From assembly GCA_029817715.1 (NCBI GenBank), contig JARUPY010000473.1:2418001-2482000 (forward strand): a stretch of DNA of 64,000 nucleotides. The letters run 5' to 3'. This document shows, in pieces, positions 29,373 through 48,913 of the stretch (the stretch's first letter is position 1; every line of letters begins with the position of its first letter). The notes under the pieces are model-generated. The model did not search any database and was not told where the DNA came from. It saw only the letters and a list, made by a program, of their open reading frames with translations. This stretch comes from Melastoma dodecandrum. Its lineage: Eukaryota > Streptophyta > Magnoliopsida > Myrtales > Melastomataceae. The translations under genes were made by a program, and so were the position numbers.

Positions 29373-32300
29373 ATGGTATCAGAGCTCGAAGAAGCGATCA
29401 TGGCAGAAGCTGTACGTGCAGGCAAGCAGGTTGAATTAGATCCTTCGTCCCCTTTCTTCGTGAGTCCCGCGGATGGACAGATCAATGTTCTGGTAACTCC
29501 AGAACTTTCGGAAGGAAATTACCTCTCATGGTCTAGATCTGTTAGGACTGCCTTGTCGATTAGAAATAAATTGGGGTTCATTGATGGCACTATATGCAAA
29601 CCTGATGATTTAGATCCCATTTATCCTGCTTGGTCGCGTTGCAATGATCTGGTTCGTACTTGGCTACAAAAATCAGTCTCGCTTTCTATTGCTGCAACTG
29701 TGTTCTTTCTGGATTCCGCGCAAGAGGTATGGGATGAACTCAGGGAAAGGTTTTCTGAACCAGATGACTTTAGAATTTGTCATTTACAATTACAATTCCA
29801 CACGCTAGTGCAAGGAAATAGAACAGTAGCAACCTATTACAATGATATGTTGTCTACTGTGAGGGAAATGAGGATTTACAGGCCATTGCCAAGGTGTTGT
29901 TGTAGAAACAAAGGCTGTATTTGGATGAAGGAGTATATGGAGCAGTATGAGAAAGATCTTGTGTTCAAGTTTTTGAACGGATTAAATGATGAATATTCTG
30001 TTTTGCGGGCACATATTCTCATGAAGAAGCCTTTTCCAACTCTTGGAGAAACTTACAACATAATTCAGCGTGAAGAAGCACAAAAGGATGCTAAGAAGAG
30101 TTTAATTGCCCCGATTGAAGGACTGGCTATGACAGTTTTGTCAGGAAAAACACAGAGAATACAACAGGAAGGAGATAGAGGAATAGCTTCAGATAAAAGA
30201 AGGAATAGAAATGACTGGTTCTGTGATCATTGTGGTAAAAAAGGCCACATGAAGGATAGATGTTATCATTTAGTTGGTTTTCCTGATACTCGGGACTCCA
30301 ACAGTAGGTTTGGAAGAGGAAGAGGACATTTACCTGGAAGAGGTGCAATCATGAGAAGAGTAAACCAAGTTTCTGTTGGGGAGAGTAATGTTGAATCTGG
30401 ATCTCAGCAACTGAATCTTTCAAAGCAACAATTTCAGAAGTTAATGGCTTTCCTCGATCTGGAAACACCTAAAAAGGACTCGGGTTCAGTTTCGGAATGC
30501 TTAATTCCTTCTCAAGCAGGTATAGTTTTTTCTTTAGGACCTGTTTTGACTTTTTCTACAAAACAAGGTCTTCTAAAAACTTGGATTCTTGACACGGGAG
30601 CTACTGACCATATTTTGTCTGACTTCAGTTTATTTCATTCAAGTCAGAAACTAAAAGCTCCTTTACAGATTCAACTTCCGGATAATTCTTCAGTCTTGGC
30701 AACACACATTGGTGTAGTTGAAATTACAGACAACCTTGTTCTTGAAAATGTTTTATTTGTGCCAAATTTCTGTTACAATCTTATCTCAGCAAGCAAACTG
30801 ACCTCTAAAGGCACAATTTGCCTTGTTTTCTTAACAAATTACTGTTGCATTCAGGACTTACAAAGGGGGATGATGATTGGGCGAGCTGAGCAACAAGAAG
30901 GCCTATATGTGATGCAGCAGATGAGGGGTCCAGACAACTCTAGTGTCAATGATTCTCAACAGCAAGCTTTGTGTCTAGCAAGTCAACATAACTCTAGATT
31001 CATTTCATTGGGTGAATTTGATCTTTGGCATTATAGATTAGGACATGCTTCTTTAGATAAACTCAAATGTTTGAATAAGATTGATTCTGCAATTTCTGTC
31101 AAACAGAATAATATTTGTAGTGCTTGTCATCAATCTAAACAAAAGAAGCTGGTTTTTCCTCTGAGCATGACTAAGACAACTCAAGCTTTTGAATTAATAC
31201 ATGTTGATATATGGGGGCCATACTCAATTGAAGCAATAGGAGGTTTTAAATATTTCTTGACTATAGTGGATGACTATAGCAGAGGGACATGGCTGTATCT
31301 CATGAGACATAAAAGTGAAACACAAAATTACATCAAATCTTTTTGTCAAATGGTTCATACTCAATTCGAACACACTGTTAAGGTAATTCGGTCTGATAAT
31401 GGTGCTGAATTTCTCATGTCTGATTTTTACAATAACAGTGGTATTTTACATCAAGTAAGCTGTCCTGAAACTCCCCAGCAAAATGGAATAGTGGAAAGGA
31501 AACATCAGCATTTGCTTTCTACTTCGAGAGCTCTCCTTTTTCAATCTGGTTTACCTTTACGTTTTTGGGGTTATGCTGTTTTAACAGCCACTTATATCAT
31601 CAACAGATTACCTTCTTCAGTCTTACAATTTAGAAGTCCTTATGAACTTCTTTTTCATAAACCACCTTCTCTTTCCCATATGAAAGTTTTTGGGTCACTC
31701 TGCTTTGTTAATACACTTTCTCAACATAGAACAAAGTTTGACAAGAGAGCTGATAATTGTGTTTTTGTTGGGTATCCTTTGAATGCTAAGGGGTATATGG
31801 TATATCATGTAGATTCCAAACAAGTTTCGATTTCCAGAAATGTTGTTTTCTATGAATCTATCTTTCCTTTTAAACTCTCTACAGCCATCAACAATAATAC
31901 TGTTTTTAGACCTTTACACTCCAGTGATACTAGTTCTCTTTATGTTTTTGATCATATCAGTGATAGAAGAAACAATACAGAAACTGCAGTTTCGGGTCTT
32001 GATGTCACTAACAATGACCTTTCTAATGATGACATCCCTAATGATGACATTTCTAATGATGACATTTCTAGTAATGCATCTATGTCTGATTCTGCACTCG
32101 TTCATAATTCTGAAACTGAGCATATAAATGAATTAGTATTGAGAAGAGGTACAAGAGAAAGGCGACCCCCATCTTATCTCAGAGATTATCACCATAGGCT
32201 TTCTATGGCTCTGGCTACTCAATCTCCTTCTCACAGGTCTGACTCTTCATTTTCTCAAATAACTGATTCTTTTACTGTACCTGCACATCCAATTGATCCT

Positions 32301-34034
32301 TTTATTGCTTATTCTCAACTTTCTTTTCCGTATAAGTCTTTTCTTGTACATTTGGAAAACCATTTTGAACCTCAGTCCTATCATCAAGCAAAACACATTC
32401 CACATTGGGTGAAGGCTATGACTGATGAGCTTAATGCTTTGGAGGATAATGCTACATGGGATATTGTTTCTTTGCCTGAAGGCAAACGCCCGATAGGTTG
32501 TAAGTGGGTCTTTAAAACTAAGTTGAAGGCAGATGGCTCTGTGGAAAGATATAAAGCCAGATTGGTAGCCAAGGGTTATACTCAAGTAGAGGGGATCGAT
32601 TATCAAGAAACTTTTAGTCCGGTTGCCAAACATACATCTGTAAGACTGTTTTTTGCTTTGGCAGCAGCTAAAGGATGGTTATTAAGGCAGTTTGACATTC
32701 ATAATGCTTTTCTTAATGGTGATTTATATGAGGAGGTGTACATGGAATTGCCACAGGGCATGCTGATTCAGGGGGAGATTGGAGATTCATCAGCATCAAG
32801 GAAGGTTTGTAAGCTGAAAAAATCTTTATATGGACTCAAACAAGCCTCTAGACAGTGGAATAGTAAATTGACACATTGTTTGCTAGCTGCTGGTTTTGTT
32901 CAGTCCAAAGCAGAGTATTCTCTGTTTGTAAGTGATACAAAGGAAGGATATGTTGCAGTGCTTGTATATGTTGATGACATTGCTGTTGCTGGGTCGAATG
33001 AGGAAGTGATTACCAAGCTACAAAAGCATTTGGAAGCATACTTCAAAGTCAGAAATTTGGGAGAGTTAAGGTACTTTCTGGGCTTAGAAATAGCAAGGTC
33101 GAGTAGAGGAATCTTTGTTTCACAAAGAGGTTATACTTTGCGATTGTTGGAAGAACAAGGGAAACTTGCTGTCAAACCCTCTTCTGTTCCCTTGCAACCC
33201 AATGTCAAACTAGTGCGAGGAGATAAAGAAAACCCAGTGAGTATTGTTTCCTATAGACAGCTAGTGGGAAAGCTTATCTATCTGGGGATAACAAGGCCAG
33301 ATATTGCTTATGTTGTACATTGTTTAGCTCAGTATATGGATTGTCCAGCTAAACAGCATTGGGATGTGGCTTCTAGTGTTCTGAGATACTTGAAATCTAC
33401 ACCAGGAAAGGGTGTTTTGTTCTCCAGTTCTTCTGATTTGTGTCTTAAAGCCTACACAGACAGTGATTGGGCAGGATGTATAGAGACAAGAAGATCGACG
33501 ACTGGTTTTTGTATTTTCTTTGGAGAATCTTTGGTGAGTTGGAAGTCGAAAAAACAGCAGACAGTTTCCAGGAGTTCTACAGAGGCAGAATATAGAGCAA
33601 TTGCCTCAACTGTAGCTGAATTGGTATGGCTGAGAGCCTTGTTGACAGATTTCTGCATAAGTTTACAACCAGCACAGCTTTTCTGCGACAATAAATCTGC
33701 CATCTACTTGACAAAGAATCCTGTTTTTCATGAGCGCACGAAGCATTTGGAGATAGATTTGCATTTTGTGAGAGAAAAAGTGACAAATGGTGAAGTTAAG
33801 ATTACTCATGTTGTGACACAAATGCAAATAGCTGATGTTCTGACGAAGGGCTTGCATCCTGTGCGTTTTCAGTTTCTTGTAGACAAGATGGGACTTATTG
33901 ATATTCATAGTTCCCATCTTGAGGGGGAGTGTGAGAAGAAGAAGAAGAAAGCTTTAGTAGTTGCAGACAGGATGCGTAGCACAGGATTGAAGCGGTGGCA
34001 ACAGGACTCATATAAGTTGGGCTGTGTTAGTTAA
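29373..34034 (+). CDS. Copia gag-pol polyprotein, uninterrupted
   Basis: One open frame of about 1,550 codons; I take the ATG at 29373, whose A is the last LTR base, as start. Domains in order: Gag with UBN2-type core, CCHC knuckle (CDHCGKKGHMKDRC, near 30220), protease WILDTGATDH (near 30590), pre-integrase LWHYRLGH (near 31030), integrase (HVDIWGP, SDNGAEF, NGIVERKHQH), RT (ATWDIVSLPEGK, DIHNAFLNGDL, YVDDIAVAG) and RNase H (YTDSDWAG, SRSSTEAEYRAIA). All catalytic residues I can check are present. The frame ends 105 bases into the 3' LTR. It could still be transposition-competent (inference). Confidence 0.95.
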   Translation: MVSELEEAIMAEAVRAGKQVELDPSSPFFVSPADGQINVLVTPELSEGNYLSWSRSVRTALSIRNKLGFIDGTICKPDDLDPIYPAWSRCNDLVRTWLQKSVSLSIAATVFFLDSAQEVWDELRERFSEPDDFRICHLQLQFHTLVQGNRTVATYYNDMLSTVREMRIYRPLPRCCCRNKGCIWMKEYMEQYEKDLVFKFLNGLNDEYSVLRAHILMKKPFPTLGETYNIIQREEAQKDAKKSLIAPIEGLAMTVLSGKTQRIQQEGDRGIASDKRRNRNDWFCDHCGKKGHMKDRCYHLVGFPDTRDSNSRFGRGRGHLPGRGAIMRRVNQVSVGESNVESGSQQLNLSKQQFQKLMAFLDLETPKKDSGSVSECLIPSQAGIVFSLGPVLTFSTKQGLLKTWILDTGATDHILSDFSLFHSSQKLKAPLQIQLPDNSSVLATHIGVVEITDNLVLENVLFVPNFCYNLISASKLTSKGTICLVFLTNYCCIQDLQRGMMIGRAEQQEGLYVMQQMRGPDNSSVNDSQQQALCLASQHNSRFISLGEFDLWHYRLGHASLDKLKCLNKIDSAISVKQNNICSACHQSKQKKLVFPLSMTKTTQAFELIHVDIWGPYSIEAIGGFKYFLTIVDDYSRGTWLYLMRHKSETQNYIKSFCQMVHTQFEHTVKVIRSDNGAEFLMSDFYNNSGILHQVSCPETPQQNGIVERKHQHLLSTSRALLFQSGLPLRFWGYAVLTATYIINRLPSSVLQFRSPYELLFHKPPSLSHMKVFGSLCFVNTLSQHRTKFDKRADNCVFVGYPLNAKGYMVYHVDSKQVSISRNVVFYESIFPFKLSTAINNNTVFRPLHSSDTSSLYVFDHISDRRNNTETAVSGLDVTNNDLSNDDIPNDDISNDDISSNASMSDSALVHNSETEHINELVLRRGTRERRPPSYLRDYHHRLSMALATQSPSHRSDSSFSQITDSFTVPAHPIDPFIAYSQLSFPYKSFLVHLENHFEPQSYHQAKHIPHWVKAMTDELNALEDNATWDIVSLPEGKRPIGCKWVFKTKLKADGSVERYKARLVAKGYTQVEGIDYQETFSPVAKHTSVRLFFALAAAKGWLLRQFDIHNAFLNGDLYEEVYMELPQGMLIQGEIGDSSASRKVCKLKKSLYGLKQASRQWNSKLTHCLLAAGFVQSKAEYSLFVSDTKEGYVAVLVYVDDIAVAGSNEEVITKLQKHLEAYFKVRNLGELRYFLGLEIARSSRGIFVSQRGYTLRLLEEQGKLAVKPSSVPLQPNVKLVRGDKENPVSIVSYRQLVGKLIYLGITRPDIAYVVHCLAQYMDCPAKQHWDVASSVLRYLKSTPGKGVLFSSSSDLCLKAYTDSDWAGCIETRRSTTGFCIFFGESLVSWKSKKQQTVSRSSTEAEYRAIASTVAELVWLRALLTDFCISLQPAQLFCDNKSAIYLTKNPVFHERTKHLEIDLHFVREKVTNGEVKITHVVTQMQIADVLTKGLHPVRFQFLVDKMGLIDIHSSHLEGECEKKKKKALVVADRMRSTGLKRWQQDSYKLGCVS

Positions 34035-34284: not shown

Positions 34285-34700
34285 TTCTCGCCAAGAGGAC
34301 AGCAGCAGCAAGAGATGGAGTCTTTCCGCAATTTCGAGGTCAGGAACGGGAAAGGGGACACGAGTCTTGCGGAGGAGGTTTCCTCGGCGACGAGGGCAGT
34401 GGTTGGTGGTTGGGGATGGGTGGATGGACGGAAGCAAACAGAGAGGGGGAAGTTTGCGGAGAGGAGGACGCTAGAAGAGGGAGGGAGGGAGGGATATTTT
34501 CTTTTTGGGTGTTTCGGAGAAATTAATGAAATGCTTTTCTTACATGAGGATAGTTCTGAAGTACAGTGGGGGAAAGAAAATAATTTGGTTTTTACCGTGG
34601 GAGGTTTCTAAATTACCAAAACATTGCTCTGATTTCCTTTGTTCCCTCGGTTTTTAGAAAAAACCCAAAATTTTGAAAATCTTTTAATTAAGTCCTTGAA

Positions 34701-36570
34701 ATGGCTGGAGAAGGAAAATCTTCGGAAAATCCTTTTGAAACTCCGTCCCGATTGGAGTTCGTTTCGGAGTCTATAATATCTCCTTATTGAATTAGCAAGA
34801 GTATAAATGATATTTTAACTCAGCTAACTATTCAAGGGAGTACAAAGAGTCTTGAGAACCGAAACCATCTTGCTCGGAAAGTAGGTTCTATAGTAAATAA
34901 GATGCTAGACTCCATTGAGCATGAGAGAAGTTTAAAAAGACCTGAAGCCGATGCGACTTCTGGACTGGGGAGTACTACGGGAAAACCAGTCGAAAAATTG
35001 AAACTGGGAAGAAGAAATTCCAAACAGGATCAAGGCAAGAGTGTCCATGAAATGTATAAAGAGTCAGTGGCTCCTTACATTTTAGACTCACGAAGGCGAA
35101 ATGCAAATTTGAACTCTCAAAGTGGAGAGTTGACGAAAGACCTAAGGAAAGCCTTAGGCCTGGCAGAGGAAATTCCAGTTCATTTAGACAATCGAACGTT
35201 TAATAAATTAGTGACTGCGAAGAGGAAAATTTACAGGCCCGATTATCCACATAGAACTAAACAAGAGTTTGTTCTAAGGGATAATGTATTAAAGCCTATA
35301 ATCACCCTGGTGCTTTTCTAGATATTGATTGTGAGAAGCACGTATCTGAAAAGATAGATGAGTGGTTATCACTAATTCAAATGACTGCGTCTGCAGGAAT
35401 ACTATCCCCTGGATCAGTTTATGAATTAAGTGTGACAGCCCTCATGGGAACAATACAAAAATACTGGAAATCTTTGGTGGTGCATAGTGACATCAAAGAA
35501 AAGATAGATCAGGTGTTGACCGTTGATGGTGTATTAGCAATTATAGCTGATGCATTAAAACGGGAGTTCTGTGGTTTTTCGCTATCCACTGAAACTGTGG
35601 AAAAGGAGCAATCGTTGACTGCTCTTGTTAAACTACAAATCTGTGATATGTGCTGGTTTGATAGCTACGTATATGAATTCCAGAAGTATTATTACAATCT
35701 GGACGTAGTTTCTCAACAGTTCATATTGGGAACCTTTTTTGCAAAACTTCCAGAACCCTGGCCGAAAGTTGCGCAAAAGGCCTATGAATTACTTCTGAGT
35801 GAAGAAAAAATTGTTTCAGGACTCGGAGGTAAGATTCAGGCGGTTAAGTAAGCAATGAGAAAAGCGTGTACTGAACTCCAGGTTAAGGAGGCAGCTAAGA
35901 AGCTACCTTACCTAAACAAGAGCTGTTGTTCTCAGATTGAATACGTACCTGGGAGGTATGGATGTGATACTCCAGGTGAATCAATGAGAACAAGAAACTT
36001 TTCCAAGAAGAGAAAATTTGTTGGATACAATAAAAGGAAAGTTTGGCCAAAGAGAGACCTCCAAAAACAACAACAAAGGAGAAGTCCTGCTTACAAACCA
36101 AGAAGGTTTATAAGGAGACGGACTAACCTTAAGGATAAAGATAGGATCGAAGCCTTTAAGAGAAAGCATGGCAAAGAACCTAAATGTCCGAAAGGGAAAC
36201 CGTTGAGCAACTGCAATTGTTGCTGGTTTTGTAGATCAAAAACCCACAAAATGGATACTTGTCCTCAGAAGAACCAAAGGAGAGAAAGGCTCCGAATGGT
36301 GTTTCTGGATGACAAGAGTCATGAAGAAGAAATCCTAGCTTATGAACCAATAGATGAGCAGGATATTTCTGACTTAGACTCAGAAGTAGAATCTATCTAT
36401 GAAGTTGTATCAAATTACGATACAGACTCAGAAGAGGATTCTGATCTCTGGAAAATGCATCTGTTCATGATGAGAGCAGAGCAAAATGGAGATGGTGATG
36501 AGTTGGTTCATTTGGAACCATCGAACCAGGTACTGGAGGAATCCCACCAGTACGAAGATCCATCCCAGTT
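34701..36570 (+). pseudogene. Endogenous pararetrovirus coat-protein region, copy 1
   Basis: Frame pieces at 34701-34790, 34902-35321, about 35322-35851 and 35855-36570 match the same region of copy 2. The core has the caulimovirid coat-protein layout: an FFAKLPEPW segment (about 35735-35765), a basic Arg/Lys-rich stretch (about 36000-36180) and a Cys/His zinc finger (CNCCWFC..H..C, about 36212-36265), followed by an acidic tract. Stop codons (near 34788 and 35850) and a frameshift near 35310 inactivate it. Coat protein preceding movement protein resembles cavemoviruses and solendoviruses, where both sit in ORF1 (family knowledge; assignment is inference). Confidence 0.8.
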
Positions 36571-36579
36571 AGTTCTAGA

Positions 36580-37198
36580 ATGGAGGTTACCTAATGTTAA
36601 CGTGAAGGAAGTCTATAATGTGTCAAGATTCAATTTTAGATCTATAATAGACATCTCACAAACAGAAGCAACGGTTCAAGTTACAAGCACGGAACTTGAG
36701 ACTTTGGATATCCCATTATTAAACGTACAACGCATTAGGGAAACCATGCAACGTACGAGAGGTGTATATAACTATATACACATTGGGTTGATCCAAGTAG
36801 GACTAACTCCGCTATTTCATCTTCCAGCGGATAGTCCTGTGGTAGTAGCGGTGATCGATAAAAAATGGCGAGAGTTTCGAGATCAGCTGATATCAGGTAT
36901 ACAGGCCAACCTTGCAAATGGCCTAGTGTGGTTTCAGGTTCATCCAAATTTCATAATGGCCCTGAACGATCGTTGTTTGGGAAATTAATTGACATTAAGG
37001 ATTAAATCAATGAATATGGATAGAATGAATTCCCAGGCCAAGTTTTTGGCGTATCATACTAGGGTACTTTATCGATCGATAAATACCACTAATCCTGGTG
37101 TGAGGAACATCCCAAGACTTACTGAGTTGTTCGAGGAAGGTCATAATAATTATCAACAATTTCATAGGCGAGAGGTGAACCCACTAGAATTAACCTAG
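36580..37198 (+). pseudogene. Endogenous pararetrovirus movement-protein region, copy 1
   Basis: 30K-superfamily movement protein, recognised by the HIGLIQVGL segment (about 36780-36805), the downstream FRDQL..NLANG stretch, and ALNDRCLGN followed by LTLRIKS. This family enlarges plasmodesmata for cell-to-cell spread. A TAA at about 36986 breaks the frame where copy 2 reads through; another stop closes it at about 37197. Confidence 0.82.
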
Positions 37199-37344
37199 CC
37201 AAGAAATTGGGTTATGACTGAGCCTGGTAGTAGCTCTAGACCGATTAGTGCGGCTAATATCCGACAGAGAGGTAACGAGATTACTTTAATGTTGGGAGAA
37301 CCGCCTAGAGATAGCTTTAGAGCTGACAGGCATTTGTCTGTAGG

Positions 37345-39416
37345 AATGAAATCAGCTTTTTGCTGGCAGTGTAAGCGACCTGGACATAGATCATTCGAAT
37401 GTCCAAATAAGCTGAAAGCTGCGGATTCCCAGAAAGGAGTGGCTAATCTCAAGGAGAAGGTAATAACCAACTCCAAGAGAAAAGCGGAAACAGATCTCCA
37501 AAAGGAGATGGTTGATCCTAAGGAGAAAGCTTCGGCTAACTCTAAAGGAAAGATGAAAATTGATTCTCAGAAGAGAATGGCTGAACCTAAGGAAAAGGTA
37601 ATAACCAATTCCAAAGGAAAAGCAGGGAAAAATTCCCAGAAGGGAATGACGGGTCCTAAAGGAGAAGTTAAGGTCAACTCCAAAGGAAACGTGATGAAAG
37701 ACTCTCAAGAGATGGTGAGTGATCCTTAAGAGGTAAGCTCTAAAGGAAAAGCGAATATGGCGGATCTGAAGGAAGAAGCTCAGGCTGATTCCCAAGAAAA
37801 AGCCAGAAAGGAGAAGAAAGCAAAACAACTTAAGTCTTCTGGTCCTAAGAAGGATGAAACGGTTGAAGAACCTTGGTGGTACCCGTTAACCACGGAGCAG
37901 TTCAATTACTGCCGTAATTACCTGGCTAAAGAGCAGAAAGTCTCCATAAACCAAGCTGTTAAATCCTACAAGGCTTTATGACAAAGCCAGAAGGAACAGA
38001 AAGAGCGAGTGGAGAGTGAGTATGCTGAGAAGGAAGCTAAGTTTAAAGCTTTCATAGGAGAGCCAGTTGTTCAAAAGGAAAAACATCCTGACGATACGGC
38101 AGAAATGGAGTACGACGAGTATTTCAATTACGAAATACCAGGAACACTCGAGGAAGGTAATCCTAAAACTCAGGAGAACCTTGAGGAAGTAATTCCTGAA
38201 GGAGGTTCGGTTAGAGAACCTGGTGAGCAAGCTCACGATGACAAAGGTCATTAAGATCTAGATGGATCTTGGTTTTTTGATTTGGACTCTTTCGAAGATA
38301 GATCCCTATCTTGGGATGCCACTGTTGTCTGTGGAGGACTCATGTGTGGTATTAAAAATAATTACCAACGCCAGATTGAGTTTTTTGCAGCAAAGGCGAT
38401 AGAGTATATCAAAGATCTGGAGTCTAAGTTGACCTACAAGGCTGTAGATGGAGAAGAACTGTCTAAGACCGTAAGGGATAGACAGCAAATTCTCACCACG
38501 ACTATGTCCATATTACCATGCGAAATCAAAGACTACGAGACTTCAAAAGTAGTAGTGGATATGAGAGAATCCTCTCTCGAGGAGAACTCTATACTTCAAC
38601 CGTATATGCACTGGATATCGGAAAAGTGGCCATCTCTGAGAATTAATTCAGGTATGGTGGGAGTTGCTTTACCTTATTTGTATGTGGGTTTTTTCGATAT
38701 TCTGGAGATCGATAGAATCAGAATCAGAACAGATAGAACCATTGCCTCACTTGGTAAAGTTCATACTCGGATGCCTAGGCTACGGTTCAAAGTATGTCAC
38801 GGCATTGATTACTAGCACTTTGATGGAGGAGGAAGAACATAAAAAGTTTGGGAAAGTAATTCTTCCCAACATGCAAGTTTGGGATATCCATCCTAGTGAA
38901 AGTAGGCATCTGATAGAACCTCAACGACAGGACCTTGATCAGAGTGGTTTATGGCGAAAGTATTACGAAGATAAAACTGTAAGAAAAGCCATAAAGATTG
39001 AGTTTCTGAAGGATGTGTTCGAGCACGTATTTACCAGCAAGGAGTTATACTATGTGCTCAGTGACGGGATGACAACTATCACGATCCTACGTTCCTATCT
39101 CAGTTATGCAGATGAGCAAGCAGGGGAGCGAGGATGGGAGAGAGTTTTGGATCTTCTGGATAGTTTCTGGAAGAGAGAAAACTCTGAATTGTGCCTCCGG
39201 ACGGACACCTTCGAAGTCTGGAGAAAAATCGCTGACTACACCGACAAATCCTTGGCACAACGATTTAAGCAAGACGAAGAGAGAGCCCAACAAAATTGTG
39301 AAGGACTAGGACTCTCTGAAGTAGTTGGCGAAACATCAAAAGCCAACGAAGAAGGAATCTCCCAGGACAGAGCAATGATGCAGACGGGAGAAGAAAATTG
39401 TATAAAGTTAAATTAG
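37345..39416 (+). pseudogene. Third viral ORF, copy 1: CCHC knuckle, Lys-rich repeats, unassigned C-part
   Basis: Starts just after the deletion junction. A classic CCHC knuckle (CWQCKRPGHRSFEC, 37361-37402) is followed by a lysine-rich tandem repeat of roughly 20 residues (about 37412-37830, units like DSQKxMxDPKEK..NSKGK). Then come a WWYPLTTEQF segment, an acidic stretch and a long C-terminal region (38282-39416) that I do not recognise. By position it is where other caulimovirids encode the translation transactivator/inclusion-body protein, but no known motif of that protein was seen. Stops near 37727, 37980 and 38252 and a frameshift near 38730 break it. Confidence 0.65.
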
Positions 39417-39620
39417 ACGATTTTGTAGTCTAGCTAGCTTTTGTAAGTTTTTGATAAAGTAGATTCTTTTACTTTTAAGCTGGCAAACAGTGCATAGGCA
39501 CCAGCTTCTTTGTGTATATATTTCACAGCCCTCTACCTCATTTGGAGAGGCGATCTGAATAGAGAATTTTCTCTCTCATCTCTCTGAGTCAAAATTTTTT
39601 AATCGTTTTCCACAATGATA

Positions 39621-39828
39621 CCTTAAGGAATTAAGAGTGGTTACAATTAATCAGAATTGATTAAAACTAACTTAAGGTTAGATTTACGAATCGAAACCTT
39701 GAAGGAAAAGTCTTTATGACTAAACCTTAAGGAATTAAGAGTGGTTAGAATTAATCAGAATTGATTAAAACTAACTTAAGGTTAGATTTACGAATCGAAA
39801 CCTTGAAGGAAAAGTCTTTATGACTAAA
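39621..39828 (+). repeat. 104-bp tandem duplication upstream of the viral promoter, copy 1
   Basis: Two near-identical units, 39621-39724 and 39725-39828, each starting CCTTAAGGAATTAAGAG. Copy 2 has one unit at about 47943-48051. It lies directly upstream of the TATA box. Confidence 0.9.
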
Positions 39829-39852
39829 CCTTGGTTTTGGATGAGGAGTGTC

Positions 39853-39860
39853 TATATAAG
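39853..39860 (+). promoter_or_regulatory. Pararetroviral TATA box, copy 1
   Basis: TATATAAG, conserved in copy 2 (48073-48080). It lies about 630 bases before the primer site, the usual leader length of caulimovirid pregenomic RNA. Confidence 0.75.
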
Positions 39861-40084
39861 ACCCTCAAGGTAAGGGCATTCAGAATGACACAGAAGAACC
39901 TCTCCACCTCACAAGAATTCTCAGTCTTGAGAAGTGAGTACCTCTTGAATTCCCAGAAGTTGCGGAAGCTTGGTGAACCCTTAGAGCTACCCATCTGAGT
40001 AAGGTATAATAAGCATCTTGTTTTAAGTTGTTTATGTTGATCTTTCTATTTTGAAAGACAGGTGCAATTGCACGAGTCATTCGT

Positions 40085-40393
40085 ATGATTGATTGTCCAA
40101 ATCCCGACTTATTCCATTTGGATCACGGAGTGGGCAAGGATTTTACTACAGGTCTTCTTAATACTGTAGTAGATCGTTTGGAAGTTCTATCAGTACAAGT
40201 AACACAGTTATCCAAGCTGGTAGAGAGTTATTCTAAGAAATTAGAAAAACTGACTCTAGTTCAGAGTGAATTTGAAGAATATTTCCTTGAAGGTAAGTCC
40301 AATATCGGATTTACGGCAAGTTCAAAATACTCAAACGAGTATTTGAGGTTGGTGGAGCGCCGACGACAAAGACAACTGAGAAAATCTTCTTAA
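40085..40393 (+). CDS. Small ORF in the viral leader, copy 1 (102 aa)
   Basis: ATG at 40085, 102 codons, open in copy 1; the copy 2 counterpart (from 48304) is stopped after 68 codons. The protein is a predicted coiled coil in its middle (heptad-like VVDRLEVLSVQVTQLSKL) with a basic C-terminus. It has no family that I recognise. Caulimovirid leaders often carry short ORFs that shape translation. Confidence 0.45.
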   Translation: MIDCPNPDLFHLDHGVGKDFTTGLLNTVVDRLEVLSVQVTQLSKLVESYSKKLEKLTLVQSEFEEYFLEGKSNIGFTASSKYSNEYLRLVERRRQRQLRKSS

Positions 40394-40488
40394 GTTCGAT
40401 TCCTGTTATTTCTGAAGAATATCTAGCATGCTGATATTTAACTCTTCAGGGAGTTAATTTGCTTTGCTTATCTTCAGTCTGTTTTAAT

Positions 40489-40500
40489 TGGTATCAGAGC
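40489..40500 (+). promoter_or_regulatory. tRNA-Met primer-binding site, copy 1
   Basis: TGGTATCAGAGC, the primer site that marks base 1 of caulimovirid maps. It lies about 190 bases from the right end of the element. Confidence 0.88.
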
Positions 40501-40698
40501 CCGCTTAAGAACGTTTTTCTTTTAAAACGTCTTGAAGGATTAAAAGAAGTAGATTTTTAAGGATAAAATTTTGGGAATTAAATTTCGGGAAGTTGAAGGT
40601 GGAAAGAAGTGGTAAATTAGGAATAAAAGGCCGACAACGGTAAAACCCAAATTTCTTTTGGGGACCACTGTGTTTTGGAACAAGGCTATTTCTTACAT

Positions 40699-41060
40699 AT
40701 ATAAAAATATAGTAACTGATCTTTTTACACATGATATAGAGTCAATGGATTCGCTTAGCATCCCCTCCCAACCCAACAACAACAACAACACATGCCAGAT
40801 GGAAGGAAAGAGAGAGACAAACTGGTGAGGTGTTGAAATAGTAACAACATACACATCATTAACATGGTTATTTCTGGTTCGAATAAAACTTACGTACCCC
40901 TCCCCCCCCCTCCACCCATTAATGGGGTTCATCCGTAATTAGTATAATATAAGACATAATTAGTATAAAAATAAATTATAAAGTAATAAAATTAATGTAA
41001 TGTCAAAGAAAGAAACCAAGGAATGAGGAGAAGTCTCGGTCAATGTCCCCCCAGACGGCC
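40699..41060. other. Host spacer between the two viral copies
   Basis: 362 bases of non-viral sequence, including a C-rich run near 40908-40918. It was probably part of the kinase promoter before the insertions. No gene seen. Confidence 0.6.
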
Positions 41061-41225
41061 AAACAAACACGAGGATAGTTCCAAAGTACTGTTGAAAGTT
41101 AAAATATTTTGGCTTTTACCGTCGGGAGTTTCAATATTACCTAAAGGCCGCTCCTAGCTCTTTTTGTCTTTCTGATTTTGGAAAAAACCCCAAAATTTTG
41201 AAAAAATTTCAATTAGGTCCTTGAA

Positions 41226-43090
41226 ATGGCTGGAGAATGAAAATCTTTTGGAAATCCTTCTGGAACTCCGGCACGATTGGAGTTCGTTTCAGAGTCTAGG
41301 ATGTCTCCTTTTGGAATTAGCAAGAGTATAAATGATATTTTAACTCAGTAACTATTCAAGGGAGCACAGAAAGTCTTGAGAACCGAAACCACCTTGCTGG
41401 GGAAGTAGGTTCTATAGTAAATAAGATGTTAGACTCTTTAGAGCATGAGAGAAGTTTAAAAAGGCCTGAAGCCGAGGCGACTTCTGGACTGAAAAGTACT
41501 ACTGAAAAACCAGTCGAAAAATTGAAACTGGGAGGAAGAAATTCCAAACAGGATCAAGGCAAGAGTGTGGATGAAATGTATAGGGAGTCAGTAGCTCCTT
41601 ACATTTTAGACCCACAAAAGCGAAATGCAAATTTGAACTCTCAAAGTGGAGAGTTGGCGATAGACCTAAGGCTGGCAGATGAACTTCCAGTTCATTTAGA
41701 CAATCGAACGTTTAATGAATTGGTGACTACGAAGAGGGAAATTTATAGGTCCGATTATCCCCCATAGAACCAAACAAGAGTTTGTTCCAAGGGATAACGT
41801 ATTCAAGCCAATAATCGCCCTTGGTGCTTTTCTAGATATCGATTGTGAGAAGCACGTATCTGAAAAGATAGATGAGTGGTTATCACTAATTCGAATGACT
41901 GCGTCTGCTGGGATATTATCCCCTGGATCAGTTTACGAATTATGTGTTGCAGCCCTCATGGGAACGACGCAAAAATATTGGAAATCTTTGGTGGCTCATA
42001 CTGACATCAAAGAAAAGATAGATCAAGCGCTGACCGTTGATGGTGTATTAGCAATCATCGCTGATGCATTAAAACGGGAGTTCTATGGTTTTTCTTTATC
42101 CACTGAGACTGTGAAAAAGGAGCAATCGTTGACTGCTCTGGTTAAGCTATAGATCGTTAATATGTGTCTGTTTGATAGCTACATATGTGAATTCCAGAAG
42201 TATTACTACAATATGGACGTAGTTTCTCAACAGTTCATATTGGGAACCTTTTTTGCAAAACTTCCAGAACCTTGGCCGGAAGTTGCGCAAAAGGCCTATG
42301 AATTACTCCTGAGTGAAAAAAAGATTGTTATGGGACTCGGAGGAAAGATTCAGGCAGTTAAGTACGCAATGAGGAAAGCATGTACTGAGCTCCAGGTTAA
42401 GGAAGCGGCTAAAATGCTGCCGTACTTAAACAAGAGCTGTTGCTCTCAGATTGAATATGTACCTGGGAGACATGGATGTGATACTCCAAGAGAATCAGCG
42501 AGAACAAGAAACTTTCCGAGGAAGAAAAAATTTGTTGGATGCAACAAGATGAAAGTTTGGCCAAAAAGATATCTCCAGAAAAAACAAAGAGGAGGTCCTG
42601 CTTATAAACCAAGGAGATTTGTAAGGAGACGGACTAACCTTAAGGATAAAGATAGGATCGATGCCTTTAAGCGAAAGCATGGCAGAGAACCTACGTGTCC
42701 GAAAGGAAAACCGTTGAGCAATTGCAATTGTTGCTGGTTTTGTGGATCAAAAACCCACAAAGCGGATACTTGTCCTCAGAAGTACCAAATGAGGGAAAGA
42801 CTCCGAATGGTGTTTCTGGATAATGGGAGTCATGAGGAAGAAATCCTGGCTTATGAACCAATAGATGAGCAGGATATTTCTGACTTAGACTCAGAAGTAT
42901 AATCTATCTATGAAGTTGTATCAAATTACGATACAGACTTAGAAGAGGATTCTGATATCTGGAAAATGCATCTATTCATGATGAGAGTAGAGCAAAATGG
43001 AGATGGTGATGAGTTGGTTCCTTTAGAAGCATTGAACCAGATACTGGAGGAATCCCACCAGTACGAAGATCCATCCCAGTCAGTCCTGGA
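41226..43090 (+). pseudogene. Endogenous pararetrovirus coat-protein region, copy 2
   Basis: Pieces 41426-41767, 41895-42152 and 42162-42902 parallel copy 1. Same FFAKLPEPW segment, basic tract, zinc finger (about 42722-42776) and acidic tail. Breaks: frameshift near 41765, TAG near 42150, TAA at about 42900 and TGA near 43094. Confidence 0.8.
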
Positions 43091-43097
43091 ATGAAGG

Positions 43098-44186
43098 TTG
43101 CCTAATGTTAATGTGAGGGAAGTCTATAATATTTCAAGATTCAATTTTAGATCTATAATAGACATCTCACAAACAGAAGCAACGGCTCAAGTTACAAGTA
43201 CAGAACTTGAGACTTTGGATATCCCATTATTAAATGTACAACGCATTAAGGAAACCATGCAACGTACGAGAGGTGTATATAACTATATACACATTGGGTT
43301 GATCCAAGTAGGACTAATTCCTCTATTCCATCTTTCAACGGATAGTCCTGTGGTAGCAGCTATTATCGATAAAAGATGGCAAGAGTTTCGAGATCAGCTG
43401 ATATCAAGAATACAGGCCAACCTGGCACATGGCCCTGTATGGTTCCAAGTCCATCCAAATTTCATGATGGCCCTGAACGACCGTTGTTTGGGAAATTCAT
43501 TAACTTTAAAGATTAAATCAATGAATATGGATATAATGAATTCCCAAGCCAAGTTTTTGGCGTATCACACTAGGGTGATTTACCTATTGGTAAATACCAC
43601 TAGTCCCGGTGTGAGGAACATCTCAAGACTTACTGAGTTGTTCGAGGAAGGTCAAAATAACTACCAACAATTTCATAGGCGAGAGGTGAATCCACTAGAA
43701 TTAACCTGGCTAAGAAATCGGGTTATGACTGAGCCTGGTAGTAGCTCTAGACCGATTAGTGCGGCTAATATCCGACAAAGAGGTAACGAGATAACTTTAA
43801 TGTTGGGAGAATCGTCTAGAGGTAGTGATAGATCTGACAGGCATCTGCCTGTGAGGATACCAGTCCTGAGAGAGCCAAGAATTCAAACGCCCTATGAAGT
43901 TTCTTCTAGATATAGTGATGTGGGAGAAGACAAATTTTCTCGACCAGCAGAAGCATCTGCCCCACCACTAATAGAAGAAATGTCTCGAAGGTCTACAGAT
44001 TCGAGGAGCCCGTCTCACCATACGGGTAGAATCGTAGGATATAGACAGGTATCTTTACCAGTCTATGAAGATCCGGTAGATCAACCGAGAGAAGAATTAA
44101 TACGGATGATGAGAGTTACCTATCTGGATAACTCTCTATCCAGTATTCCCGAAGTCTGTAAGGTTATTGAGCAAATAGCCGAGTAG
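43098..44186 (+). pseudogene. Movement protein and linker, copy 2
   Basis: 362-codon open frame with the movement-protein core intact through HIGLIQVGL and ALNDRCLGNSLTLKIKS (about 43280-43520). It continues into a polar linker that copy 1 lost. It is open here while upstream and downstream frames are stopped, consistent with chance survival. Confidence 0.82.
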
Positions 44187-44192
44187 AGGTCT

Positions 44193-45655
44193 ATGTCAGT
44201 AGACGAAATCTGGAGGATGATAGAACCATCCCATGAGGTACCCAGAAATATTAATTTTAGTATAAGGAAAGAAGACTTGAGCACATATGTAGCTCTAACT
44301 TTCAAATTTTCGGGACACTATGAGTATTCTCTGGATACTTTGATAGACACTTGGTGTAGCATAAGTTGTGCTAGACTCAATGCTCTACCAGATGAGTGGT
44401 GGAAACCACTGCAGAAACCCATCCATATGGTAAATGTAGATGGAATGGCGACAATTGTTAGCCATCAGGCCAATAATGTGCCTGTCTTTATTGGTGGACA
44501 AAAGTTCATCATTAAAGAGATCCTGGCCCATCCTTTATTAGAGGCAGACATCATAATTGGTAATTCTTTTTTAAAGGGACAAAAGGAAAAATTACCTTTT
44601 GTGCAGGATGTCCATCAAGATGGAAGAAGATTCGGTTCTATCTAACTGCCTTCAATGCTCCGCAAGGAATGTTTGAATGGCTGGTGATGTCGTTCGGCCT
44701 GAAGAATGCTCCAGGCGTCTTTCAGCACAAAATGGATAATGCTTTCAAGCAGGTCCGCAAATTTAGTGCGGTCTACATAGACGATATGTTAGTCTACAGT
44801 CAGACTGAAGACGACCACATGAGACACCTAGATAAGGTAACTGATGTCTTCCGACAGGAGGGCATGATTCTACCAGAAAGAAAGATATAATGGTTTAAGG
44901 AGTCAGTTAATTTTTTAGGTATGGAGATTGAGCAAGGAAAAATTAAATTCCAAAGCCATATTACCGAAAAAATTGTTGATTTTCCTGACAGACTTGAGGA
45001 TAGAAAACAAGTCCAAAGATTTTGTGGATTTGTTAACTATGCAAGAAAGTTTGTGAAGGATCTTTCCCAAGATCTAGGGAGGATTTCAAAGAAAACATCT
45101 TCTGTGAATCATTGGTTATGGGAAGATGAGGATACTCATGCTATTCAGAGGATTAAGAGAAAGGTTAAAAATCTACCTCAACTCTCTTTACCATCTGACA
45201 AAGATGAGTTAGTCCTGGAAATTGATGCTTCTAACGAGTTCTGAGGGGCTGTCCTTAAAATTAAAGGAAGAAAGCCTGAACCCGTTTGTAAGTATTGGTC
45301 AGGTAGCTTTAAGGGGTACGAACTCCGATACTCGATACACGAAAAAGAAGTATTGGCTTTAAAAAATGGAATAAAAGCCTTTTACATCTTTTTGGCACCA
45401 AAGAAATTCGTAGTGCGCTCTGACTCGACCTATGTAACAAGGTTTATGAGTCTGAACCTCAAAGAGGCTAGGCAAATTAGACTTTTGAGGTTGCAGGAAT
45501 GGTTTAGCTATTATAAATTCGATGTCGAGTATATCTCTTCGGACAAAAACATAATAGCTGACTCTCTTTCTAGAGAACTTGCAGATCGATCCAGCCGCGA
45601 AGAGGAAGATCTGCTAGGGATGCAAGCAAGAGGGACACTCCAAGAAGGTATGTCC
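44193..45655 (+). pseudogene. Protease-reverse transcriptase-RNase H region, copy 2
   Basis: Retropepsin-like segment at 44193-44600 with active site LIDTWCSISC, where the canonical DTG/DSG Gly is Trp. RT resumes at about 44620 (FEWLVMSFGLKNAP, YIDDMLVYS at about 44775-44800). The segment between protease and this point, which should hold the first catalytic Asp of RT, is absent. RNase H (about 45215-45580) shows IDAS, EKEVLAL, RSDSTYV and NIIADSLSR. In-frame stops near 44644, 44889 and 45243. No integrase, as expected for Caulimoviridae. Confidence 0.85.
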
Positions 45656-45659
45656 TAAT

Positions 45660-47767
45660 AAGAGAGATAGTGAGCATAGTGATGCTGGTTCCAATTCTGG
45701 AACGAAATCAGCTTTGTGCTGACAGTGTAAGCGACCTAGACATAGATCATTTGAATGTCCAAATAAGCTGAAAGCTGCGGATTCCCAAAAGGGAGTGGCT
45801 AATCTCAAGGAGAAGGTAATAGCCAACTCCAGGAGAAAAGCGGAAACAGACCTCCAGAAAGAAATGGTTGATCCTAAGGAGAAAGCTTCGGCAAGCTCTA
45901 AAGGAAAAACGAAGGTTGATTCTCAGAAGAGAATGGCTGAACCTAAGGAAAAGGTAAAAACTAATTCCAAAGGGAAAGCAGAGAAAAATTCCCAGAAGGG
46001 AATGACGGATCCTAGAGGAGAAGATAACGTCAACTCCAAAGGAAACGTGATGAAAGACTCTCAAGAGAGAGTGGCTGATCCTAAAAAGGTAAGTTCTAAA
46101 GGACAGGCGAAGATGGTGGATCTGAAGGAAGAAGCTCAAGCTGATTCCCAAGAAAAAGCCAGAAAGAAGAAGAAAGCAAATAGCTTAAATCTTCTGGTCC
46201 TGAAAAGGATGGAAAGGTTGAAGAACCTTGGTGGTACCCGTTAACCACGGAACAATTACTGCCGTAATCACCTGGCTAAAGAGCAAAAAATCTCCATAAA
46301 TCAAGCTGTCAAATCCTATAAGGCTTTATTACAAAGTCGAAAGAAGGCGAATGAGCGGATGGAGACTGAGTATGCTGAGGAGGAGGCAAAGTTCAAAGCC
46401 TTTATAGGAGAGCCAGTTGTTCGGAAGGAAGAACATCCTGACGACACGGTGGAAATGGAGTATGACGAGTATTTCAATTACAAAATACCTGGCACACTCG
46501 AAGAAGGTAATCCTAAAACTCAGGAGAACCTTGAGGAAATAATTCCTGAAGGAGGTTCGGTTAGAGAACCTGGTGAGCAAACTCACAATGACAAAGGTCA
46601 TGAAGATCTAGATGGATCTTGGTTTTTTGATCTGGACTCTTTCGAAGATGGATCCCTTTCTTGGGATGCAACTGTTGTCTGTGAAGGACTCATGCTATTA
46701 AAAATAATTACCAACGTCATATTGAGTTTTTTGCAGCAAAAGCGATAGAGTACATCAAAGATCTGGAGTCTAAATTATCTTACAAGACTTCGGATGGAGA
46801 AGAACTGTCTAAAACCGTAAGGGATAGACAGCAAATTCTCACCACGACTATGTCCATATTACCATGCGAAGTCAAAGACTACGAGACTTCAAAAGTAGTA
46901 GTGGATATGAGATAATCCTTTCTCGAGGAGAACTCTGTACTTCAACCGTATCTACACTGGATATCTGAAAAGTGGCCGTCCCTGAGAATTAATTCAGGTA
47001 TGGTGGGAGTTGCTTTACCATATTTGTACGCAGGTTTTGTCGACATTCTGGAGATTGATAGATCAGAACCAGAACAGATAGAACCGTTGCCTCACTTGGT
47101 AAAGTTCATACTCGGATTTGGATGCGGATCAGAGTATGCCACGGCATTGATTACTAGCACTATGGAGGAGGAAGAACATGAAAAGTTCGGGAAAGTAATT
47201 ATTCCCAACATGCAAGTATGGGACATCCATCCTAGTGAGAGTAGGCATCTGATAAAACCTCAACGACAGGGCCTTGATCAGAGAGGTTTATGGCGAAAGT
47301 ATTACAAAGATAAAACTGTAAGAAAAGCCATAAAGGTTGAGTTTCTGAAGGATGTGTTGGAGCACGTATTTGCCCGCAAGGAGTTATACTATGTGCTCAG
47401 TGACGGGATGACAACTGTCATGATCCTCCGTTCCTATCTCAGTTATACAGATGAACAAGCAGGGGAAGGAGGATGGGAAAGAGTTTTGGATCTTCTAGAT
47501 AGTTTCTGGAAGAGAGAAAACTCTGAGTTGTGCCTTCGGACGGACACCTTTGAAGTCTGGAGAAAAATCGCTGACTACACCGACAAATCTTTAGCCCAGC
47601 GATTTAAACAAGATGAAGAGAGAGCTCGACAAAATTTTGAAGGACGAGGACTCTCTGAGGAAGTTGGCGAAACTTCAAACGCCAACAAAGAAGGAATCTC
47701 CCAGGATAGAGCAATGATGCTGACGGGAGAAGAAAATTGTATAAAGATAGATCAGACAATTTTGTAG
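45660..47767 (+). pseudogene. Third viral ORF, copy 2
   Basis: Counterpart of 37345-39416. The CCHC knuckle (45717-45758) has a TGA at its second position and Gly-to-Arg before the His. The lysine-rich repeats run about 45770-46180; the acidic and C-terminal parts are 46359-46748 and 47000-47767. Because copy 2 keeps RNase H upstream, this shows that the ORF follows the polymerase in the ancestral genome. Confidence 0.65.
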
Positions 47768-48072
47768 CTTTTGTAAGCTTTTGATAAAGTAGATTCTTTA
47801 CTTTTGAGCTGGCAAACAGTGCATAGGCACCAGCTTTTTGTATATATTTCACGACCCTCTACCTCATTTGGGGAGGCGATCTGAATATAAAATTTTCTCT
47901 CACATCTCTCTGAGTCAAAATTCTTTGATCGTTCTCCAAGGATACCTTAAGAAATCAAGAGTGGTTAGAATTAATCAGAATTGATTAAAACTAACTTAAG
48001 GTCAGATTTACGAATCGAAACCTTGAAGGAAAAGTCTTTAAGACTAAACCTTGTTCTTGGATGAGGAGTGTC

Positions 48073-48080
48073 TATATAAG
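48073..48080 (+). promoter_or_regulatory. Pararetroviral TATA box, copy 2
   Basis: TATATAAG in the same context as 39853-39860, with a single upstream unit instead of the duplicated one. Confidence 0.72.
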
Positions 48081-48707
48081 ACCCTCAAGGTAAGGGCATT
48101 CAAAATGACACAGAAAAACCTCTCTCTCTCACAGGATTCTCAACTTTGAGAAGTGAGTCACTCTTGGATTTCCAGAAGTTGCAAAAGTTTGGTGAACCCT
48201 CAGAGCTATCCCTTGGACTAAGGTATGATAAGCATCTTGTTTTAAGATTGTTTATGTTGATCTTTCTAGTTTAAAAGGCAGGTGCAGTGCACGAGTTATT
48301 CTTATGACTGGTTGTCTAAACCCCGAATTATTCCATTTGGATCACGGAGTGGGCAAGAATTTTACTACCGGTCTTCTCAATACTGTAGTAGATCGTCTAG
48401 AAATTCTATCAACAAAAGTAACTCAGTTATCTAAGCTGGTAGAGAGTTATTCTAAGAAATTAGAAGAACTGACTCTAGTTCAGAATGAATTTGAGGAATA
48501 TTTCCTTTAAGGTAAGTCCAATCTCAGATTTACGGCAAGTTCAAAATACTCAAACGAGTATTTGAGGTTGGTGGAATGCCGACGACAAAGACAATTGGGA
48601 AAATCTTCTTAAGTTCGATTCCTGTCATTCCTAAAGAATATCTAGCATGCTGATATTTAACTCTTCAGGGAGTTAATTTGCTTTGCTTATCTTCAGTATT
48701 ATTTAAT

Positions 48708-48719
48708 TGGTATTAGAGC
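48708..48719 (+). promoter_or_regulatory. tRNA-Met primer-binding site, copy 2 (one mismatch)
   Basis: TGGTATTAGAGC, one C-to-T change from the consensus kept in copy 1. Confidence 0.82.
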
Positions 48720-48913
48720 CCGCTTAAGAATAATTTTTCTATTTTGTCTTGAAGGACTCAATTAGAAAAGGTTAAGTTTTGGGGATAAAAATTTAGAAAG
48801 ATCATAAAAGAAGAAGGGGGAGACGGTGAGATAGGAAAATAAAAACGAACAACGGTAAAAAAGGAAATATTTTGGTGGACCACTGTAAGTTGGTACAGTC
48901 CTCAAACAAACAC

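What the first reader, a model, noticed from the sequence alone, without database searches (positions are those of the whole stretch)
34536..48913. Pararetrovirus genomes packaged in a Mutator-like transposon: two insertions with shared inverted ends and 10-bp target duplications
Seen: two unit-length caulimovirid-like sequences have the same outer ends relative to the viral map. All four ends share one inverted sequence of about 55 bp (GAGGA start, then ACAGTGG and TTTTACCGT blocks), and each copy is flanked by a different exact 10-bp duplication (TTTCTTACAT; AAACAAACAC). Known: Caulimoviridae lack an integrase and normally enter chromosomes by repair, leaving irregular ends and no uniform duplication; Mutator-like elements make 9-10-bp duplications and often start with G. 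Inference: a viral genome was captured between Mutator-like ends, or acquired such ends, and then moved as a DNA transposon. I am not aware of a described element of this kind.
Basis: partly seen in the sequence, partly recalled or inferred. Interest (0 to 1): 0.96.

Follow-up and report, generated by a model that had tools for sequence, protein, structure and literature searches.

The report
Plant pararetrovirus with jumping-gene ends
Relatives of cauliflower mosaic virus in this plant's chromosomes sit between the ends of a jumping gene and were inserted cleanly, as a transposon would be, which suggests that a virus without its own insertion enzyme borrows one from the host's transposons.

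Summary
Two decayed caulimovirid-like elements (34546-40688, 41071-48903) have about 52-bp imperfect inverted ends and exact 10-bp target duplications. They belong to a large family in this 373-Mb genome. Six judgeable copies with type-A or A-like ends have 10-bp duplications (5 exact, 1 at 9/10). A younger group with different ends (type B, GGGCACTTTATCAAATATATCCC) has 9-bp duplications: 23 of 26 exact, 0 of 330 in crossed controls. One type-B insertion has a 300/300 identical empty site. Of the 40 best type-B right ends, 37 pair with a left end 8.1-8.7 kb away. ORF1 (coat protein) is open over all codons read in 19 of 30 type-B loci, dN/dS 0.07; ORF-X 0.12. So these copies descend from a replicating lineage under selection, not from inert cargo. 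No transposase domain was found in the pieces scanned; Mutator transposases abound in the genome. I infer host Mutator-type transposases acting in trans on a pararetrovirus that carries their ends beside its primer site. Not shown: that transposase, a circular form, an exogenous virus.

The parts
34536..34545 (.). target duplication of copy 1, left (TTTCTTACAT)
34546..34598 (+). left inverted end of copy 1 (type A)
34701..36988 (+). ORF1 region of copy 1, decayed: start at 34701, coat-protein domain in 35381-35851 (below cut-off), movement-protein N part in 35855-36988
37214..39416 (+). ORF-X of copy 1 in pieces (CCHC knuckle in 37214-37729; later part 38282-39416); the protease-RT region is missing from this copy
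39851..39863 (+). TATA-box-like site of copy 1 (TCTATATAAG)
40489..40501 (+). tRNA-Met primer-binding site of copy 1 (TGGTATCAGAGCC)
40636..40688 (-). right inverted end of copy 1 (begins TAGCC)
40689..40698 (.). target duplication of copy 1, right
41061..41070 (.). target duplication of copy 2, left (AAACAAACAC)
41071..41122 (+). left inverted end of copy 2 (type A)
41226..42902 (+). ORF1 / coat protein of copy 2, decayed; Caulimovir_coat_dom in 42162-42902 (25.2 bits, cut-off 27)
43098..44186 (+). movement protein (PF01107, E 2.9e-20)
44193..44645 (+). aspartic protease (PF02160, E 1.4e-10)
44564..45655 (+). reverse transcriptase and RNase H, broken into three open pieces
45723..47764 (+). 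ORF-X, decayed here; 748-774 aa and open in the three other copies read in full
48071..48083 (+). TATA-box-like site of copy 2
48232..48507 (+). small open frame (92 codons stop to stop here; 101 aa scanned in L058), no family over its cut-off
48708..48720 (+). tRNA-Met primer-binding site of copy 2 (TGGTATTAGAGCC; TGGTATCAGAGCC in L056-L058)
48852..48903 (-). right inverted end of copy 2 (begins GAGGA)
48904..48913 (.). target duplication of copy 2, right

Best explanation
This is a caulimovirid (pararetrovirus) lineage whose genome carries Mutator-type transposon ends in the non-coding leader, between the tRNA-Met primer-binding site and the first gene. Shown: linear genomes opened at that point are inserted with precise 10-bp (type A ends) or 9-bp (type B ends) target duplications, one with an identical empty site; the type-B copies derive from a lineage under strong purifying selection; a nearly type-B coding genome also occurs with A-like ends. 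Inferred: Mutator-type transposases of the host, not an enzyme of the element, recognise the ends and insert the DNA; between insertions the genome exists as a circle in which right and left ends abut, because only then does the promoter near the right end, followed by the primer site, lie upstream of ORF1 and yield the terminally redundant RNA that a pararetrovirus copies; excision of an integrated copy could restore that circle. In effect the virus has a transposase-made provirus in place of the integrase it lacks.
For: Duplications: type A and A-like 5 of 6 exact and 1 at 9/10, crossed pairs at most 6/10 in 30; type B 23 of 26 exact, two at 8/9, one at 3/9, crossed 0 of 90 and 0 of 240 exact. 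Empty site: joined host flanks of the C152 insertion match C261:622176-622475 at 300 of 300 (junction read). Unit length: of the 40 best-scoring type-B right ends (253 candidates), 39 pair with a listed left end, 37 of them at 8135-8744 bp. Abundance: 171 type-B and 39 type-A end matches with up to 3 mismatches, 0 and 0 for reversed patterns. Selection: ORF1 dN/dS 0.071 over 19 open type-B copies (171 pairs), ORF-X 0.124-0.126 over 3 pairs; ORF1 differences by codon position 2496/2019/13646. Ends and proteins are separable: the C265 copy has ends nearer type A (55-71% against 44-47% over the first 50 columns), yet ORF-X 92% identical to two type-B copies, and falls within the type-B coding clade (B plus this copy against A, support 1.0; nested node 0.89). 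Anatomy: TATA site, small frame, primer site, then the right end. PF10551 Mutator transposases: 150 scored of 1241 candidates, many in open frames of about 700 aa. No transposase domain in the element pieces scanned.
Against: No right-end/left-end junction, expected if circles exist and sometimes enter as concatemers, was found; only one exact type-B pattern was tried. The fold of ORF-X is unknown (AlphaFold2 mean pLDDT 34), so a new recombinase in it is not excluded. The argument that duplication length follows the ends and not the proteins leans on one copy, C265, whose flanking repeat runs to 14 bp and is 10 bp only by alignment of the ends. One of 26 type-B copies (C136:8179630) has no duplication. 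Some copies are truncated at an end (C501, C129, C130), and only 40 of 137 ORF-X places have a left end in my capped lists, so how many copies lack proper ends is unknown. The MP-to-RNase H part of an intact type-B copy was not read. No relative was found in IMG/VR. The low divergence of the leader (0.053 against 0.175 at fourfold sites) is biased, because the loci were picked by similarity of that stretch.
Confidence: 0.76

Rival explanations
1. A non-autonomous Mutator-like element captured a pararetrovirus genome once (a Pack-MULE with viral cargo) and was then copied as DNA by Mutator transposase; the viral genes are passive.
For: Ends, duplications and empty site fit. Type-A copies, including both in the window, are decayed: in 0 of 30 loci is ORF1 open through the codons read.
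Against: Purifying selection on ORF1 and ORF-X among younger copies, 19 of 30 type-B loci open over the 507-509 codons read, near-uniform length of the best-scoring copies, and a type-B-like coding core under A-like ends.
Confidence: 0.09
2. The element encodes its own integration enzyme, for example in ORF-X, which cuts at a leader hairpin and makes 9-10 bp duplications; the likeness to Mutator ends is convergence.
For: ORF-X (748-774 aa, CCHC knuckles) is conserved and has no known function; the joined ends could form a hairpin in the leader (inference).
Against: Duplication length changes with the ends while ORF-X is 92% identical in the C265 copy (one copy only); no transposase or integrase domain in the pieces scanned. 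The fold could not be modelled.
Confidence: 0.12
3. Ordinary endogenous caulimovirids inserted by break repair; ends and duplications are coincidence.
For: One of two widely held hypotheses for the family (PMC10377300, section 3.1 read); type-B targets are AT-rich; some copies have truncated or divergent ends.
Against: Recurring ends, fixed-length exact duplications in 28 of 32 copies (5 of 6 and 23 of 26), and the empty site.
Confidence: 0.01

Closest known systems
Endogenous caulimovirids (for example florendoviruses, petunia vein clearing virus; family Caulimoviridae)
   Same: coat domain, 30K-type movement protein, A3 protease, RT-RNase H, tRNA-Met primer site, TATA-type promoter, no recognisable integrase, many chromosomal copies
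   Different: defined inverted ends, fixed 9/10-bp target duplications, near-uniform length of the type-B copies paired here, coat protein encoded before the movement protein; the review PMC10377300 (section 3.1 read) calls the integration mechanism speculative
Mutator-like elements and Pack-MULEs
   Same: inverted ends starting with G, 9-10 bp target duplications, non-autonomous members (family traits partly recalled)
   Different: cargo is a reverse-transcribing virus genome under purifying selection; no transposase domain found in the pieces scanned
Teratorn (medaka element joining a piggyBac-like transposon; PMC10175614, abstract start seen in listings; that its partner is a herpesvirus is recalled)
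   Same: virus joined to a DNA transposon
   Different: an animal element of 180 kb; here a small reverse-transcribing virus with ends of at least two kinds and apparently no transposase of its own
LTR retrotransposons and retroviruses
   Same: reverse transcription, tRNA primer, chromosomal copies with target duplications
   Different: no LTRs, no integrase found, 9-10 bp instead of 4-6 bp duplications (the latter recalled)

Membership tests
Caulimoviridae | coat domain, movement protein, aspartic protease, RT and RNase H | tested here: met
   Pfam: coat 36.3, 32.9 and 35.0 bits over cut-off 27 in the three type-B ORF1 scanned, below it in the window copies; MP 2.9e-20, protease 1.4e-10; RVT_1 3.2e-18, RNase H 1.2e-12
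Caulimoviridae | tRNA-Met primer-binding site | tested here: met
   TGGTATCAGAGCC; a 16-nt site beginning with the same 13 nt is quoted in PMC13308828 (passage)
Caulimoviridae | usual order MP before CP | tested here: not met
   coat domain in ORF1, MP after it; P0005 from Melastoma has a coat domain and, by eye, a CCHC knuckle behind it. That MP comes first is recalled, and listed so for WolV1 in PMC13308828 (passage)
Caulimoviridae | RT phylogeny within the family | not tested
   no intact RT locus was read and no reference RT set was used
Mutator-like elements | inverted ends | tested here: met
   0, 1, 0 and 0 of 2000 shuffles reach the scores of the four elements tested
Mutator-like elements | 9-11 bp target duplication (range recalled) | tested here: met
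   10 bp type A, 9 bp type B
Mutator-like elements | MURA-type transposase in an autonomous member | tested here: not met
   no PF10551 or other transposase match in the element pieces scanned; at most a non-autonomous member
Mutator-like elements | mobilised by a Mutator transposase | not testable with these tools
   needs the partner element or an assay
Pack-MULE | captured cargo that drifts without selection (as I use the term) | tested here: not met
   dN/dS 0.07 and 0.12 among open copies
LTR retrotransposon | long terminal repeats and integrase | tested here: not met
   no direct repeat joins the two ends of one copy among the 20 of 22 families shown; no integrase domain in the pieces scanned

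The most novel reading that the evidence does not exclude
A reverse-transcribing plant virus with a regular proviral stage made by borrowed DNA transposases: circular viral DNA with abutted Mutator-type ends is inserted by host Mutator transposases, can be cut out again into a circle that is the transcription template, and the lineage has exchanged its ends for those of another Mutator family.
Probability: 0.45. Interest if true: 0.97.

Novelty: categorically new. Interest (0 to 1): 0.93.

Why it matters
How caulimovirids enter plant chromosomes is an open question; the 2023 review calls the mechanisms speculative (PMC10377300, section 3.1). Here is a family for which the insertion chemistry can be read directly: ends, duplications, empty site. 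It joins two things that are kept apart, copying by reverse transcription and insertion by a DNA transposase, and it gives concrete tests: find the Mutator family with the same ends, look for circles with joined ends, see whether insertion stops when that family is silenced. It would also explain how a virus without integrase could reach well over a hundred chromosomal copies, many with open genes.

Tried and rejected
AlphaFold2 of the ORF-X C part gave mean pLDDT 34; no fold search was made with it. PDB profile search of ORF-X found weak matches only, all at E 0.69 or worse and mostly zinc-knuckle proteins. IMG/VR scan with the coat-protein alignment: 20 pattern stretches, none a relative. 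Junction search for abutted type-B ends: 0. Second empty-site search (C589 flanks): no full-length empty site; one 84% stretch, C95:224700-224837, crosses the joint at query 54-201. The first tree (60 sequences) had long branches and did not split A from B cleanly: the smallest clade with all B sequences held 12 A sequences, because L065_B sat apart. I then dropped 8 sequences by eye as long-branched or truncated (L019, L030, L035, L040, L041, L043 of A; L064, L065 of B), leaving 52. Two haplotig copies (L017, L037) and the duplicate L062 were left out of both trees. Type-A copies at C501 and C129 lack one terminus, so their duplications could not be judged and they are not among the 6. Break repair, LTR elements and passive cargo were considered and rejected as stated. 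Literature: searches (library without bioRxiv; two searches listed 20 of 72 and 15 of 73 papers) listed no paper whose title or abstract start describes pararetroviruses with inverted ends and target duplications; two searches were on side questions. I read section 3.1 and part 2 of 3 of the references of PMC10377300 and passages of it, and only passages of PMC13308828, PMC9719215, PMC11939994, PMC10741241, PMC12312487 and PMC10706983; all else was seen as listings. The passage of PMC9719215 reports no transposase or integrase domains in its caulimovirid consensus sequences, which would not reveal ends without a transposase. That Mu elements occur as extrachromosomal circles is recalled; searches did not show it.
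Full report
What is in the window. Two caulimovirid-like elements lie at 34546-40688 and 41071-48903. Each has inverted ends of about 52 bp and an exact 10-bp duplication of a different target. Three of the four ends start GAGGA; the right end of copy 1 starts TAGCC. Against shuffles the inverted match is strong (0 and 1 of 2000). Copy 2 keeps recognisable coat domain, movement protein, A3 protease, RT and RNase H; copy 1 has lost about 1.85 kb covering most of the polymerase region. Both are decayed.

They belong to a large family. The window lies in an unnamed 373-Mb genome. A search with the left 280 bases scored 40 of 505 candidates; of the 30 loci cut out, 25 match from base 1 of the end, 3 from base 3 or 5, and 2 only from base 66 or 88. 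ORF-X gave 137 scored matches of 799 candidates. The counts are lower bounds by the tool's own statement. Contig C511 holds the same two copies with the same duplications and is treated as a haplotig. Of the 137 ORF-X places, 40 have a left end (23 type A, 17 type B) 3-12 kb upstream in my lists. Those lists are capped (41 type-A rows; 100 of 171 type-B matches), so for the other 97 the ends are simply not known. Among the right ends seen, those of L048, L050, L052 and L055 differ from types A and B beyond the primer site, and C501 and C129 each lack a terminus.

Two kinds of ends, two duplication lengths. Of 6 copies with type-A or A-like ends that could be judged, 5 have exact 10-bp duplications and 1 has 9 of 10; crossing left and right flanks of different copies gave at most 6 of 10 in 30 pairs. 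In the C265 copy the repeat happens to run to 14 bp, and 10 is set by alignment of the ends. A second group has different ends, GGGCACTTTATCAAATATATCCC on the left and, in L058, GGCTTAATTATCCAATATATCC on the right, and 9-bp duplications: 8 of 10 exact in the first set and 15 of 16 in the second, together 23 of 26, two at 8 of 9, and one (C136:8179630) with none; crossed pairs gave 0 of 90 and 0 of 240 exact. A few of these are A or T runs. Type-B targets are AT-rich: A or T in 24-30 of 30 loci at each of the last nine bases, in 17-23 of 30 at the three before. The type-B left end has 171 genome matches at up to 3 mismatches and the type-A end 39, against 0 for each reversed pattern.

An empty site. 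Host flanks of the type-B insertion on C152, joined with one copy of GTAAATTTT, match C261:622176-622475 at 300 of 300 bases, and the junction was read there. Eight further matches at 70-89% also run across the joint, and C261 also holds a type-B right end with the identical right flank (C261:679912-680273), so the empty copy may be an allele or a local duplicate. A second trial (C589) gave only an 84% stretch across the joint.

Length and open genes. Of the 40 best-scoring type-B right ends (253 candidates), 39 pair with a listed left end on the same strand: 37 at 8135-8744 bp and 2 at about 24 kb; one is unpaired. From a conserved start 137-139 bp inside the left end, ORF1 is open through all 507-509 codons read in 19 of 30 type-B loci; in 0 of 30 type-A loci is it open through the codons read, the longest being 425 (two of the 30 are haplotig duplicates). 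The type-B loci were the best matches to one copy and so favour young ones. The three ORF-X copies read in full (L056-L058) are open at 748-774 aa.

Selection. Among the 19 open ORF1 copies mean dN is 0.0215 and mean dS 0.301, ratio 0.071 (171 pairs); three ORF-X pairs give 0.124-0.126. Restricting to open copies favours a low dN somewhat, but third codon positions hold most differences (2496/2019/13646 over all pairs; 29/27/139 in the 8 pairs under 3% divergence). Inert cargo would drift. The leader with the end is less diverged (0.053) than fourfold sites (0.175), but those loci were selected by that stretch, so I use this only as a hint.

Ends and genes are separable. The C265 copy (L057, L060) has ends nearer type A than type B: its left end is 55-71% like seven type-A copies and 44-47% like five type-B copies over the first 50 columns, and its right end reads GAGCTTTGTACC, as GAGCTTTGTTCC in the type-A copies L015 and L049. 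Its coding core is like type B: ORF-X 92% identical to two type-B copies, ORF-X DNA 85-96% like them by window against 67-78% to the window's copy 2, ORF1 region 92-93% to L059 and L061. Its non-coding block, from just after ORF-X to the right end and from the left end to the ORF1 start, is distinct from type B. In the ORF1 tree B plus C265 separates from A with support 1.0, and C265 lies within B (0.89 at the node with five B copies, after the 8 exclusions told under tried and rejected). Nearly the same proteins thus go with a 10-bp and a 9-bp duplication, so the cutting enzyme is best sought outside the element; this rests on one copy. Fixed 9-10 bp duplications with such ends are the mark of Mutator-type transposases (recalled). 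Mutator transposase domains are plentiful here: 150 scored of 1241 candidates, many in open frames of about 700 aa. None was found in the element pieces scanned; the MP-to-RNase H part was scanned only in the window's decayed copies.

How it may work. Order along the integrated element: left end, leader, ORF1 with coat protein, movement protein, protease, RT-RNase H, ORF-X, TATA-type site, small frame, tRNA-Met primer site, right end. ORF-X has one zinc knuckle by Pfam and a second by eye. A transcript from the TATA site would leave the element within about 0.8 kb, so an integrated single copy should not make a genomic RNA. In a circle with abutted ends the same promoter drives a leader with the primer site, then the joined ends, then ORF1: the usual pararetrovirus layout. 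I infer that circle, its reverse transcription, and insertion by a host transposase. Excision to a circle is a further inference; no junction was found in the assembly with the one exact pattern tried.

Relatives. ORF-X has one database relative, from Melastoma candidum (83% over 62% of the query); the movement protein one there and one remote metagenome protein; ORF1 has relatives in Melastoma (93%), Euphorbia peplus (52%) and Mercurialis annua (59 and 68%). These searches see only relatives that share short exact words. The host is probably near Melastoma, which was not tested further. Whether those genomes hold the ends is unknown. IMG/VR gave no relative.

Place in knowledge. [quoted passage not shown] My searches listed nothing with inverted ends and target duplications for pararetroviruses; two of the lists were capped, and the library lacks bioRxiv and most subscription journals. 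I call the thing categorically new because I know of no reverse-transcribing virus with DNA-transposon ends; a cautious reader may prefer 'new variant of a known kind'.

Noticed in passing
window 42162-44186; P0005: Coat protein is encoded before the movement protein, an unusual order for the family (usual order recalled).
   Followed up: partly
window 48232-48507; L058 742-1047: A small conserved frame of about 100 codons lies between the TATA site and the primer site; no family over its cut-off.
   Followed up: partly
window 29373-34031: Open 1553-aa Copia-type gag-pol (RVT_2, rve) just left of copy 1.
   Followed up: partly
window 10997-15031 (-) and 14-730 (+): Fragments of Copia-type elements, and of an RNase H / H2C2-integrase (Ty3-type) polyprotein.
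   Followed up: no
window 39620-39916: A tandem duplication with 104-bp spacing (71% alike) in copy 1 near the TATA site.
   Followed up: no
G000:C602:1181724 and 1181899 (-): Two type-B left ends 175 bp apart on one strand.
   Followed up: no
G000:C352:577100-601156 and C130:3052130-3076696: Type-B end pairs about 24 kb apart, perhaps elements with nested insertions.
   Followed up: no
L048, L050, L052, L055: Right ends of further copies diverge from types A and B beyond the primer site; possibly more kinds of ends.
   Followed up: no
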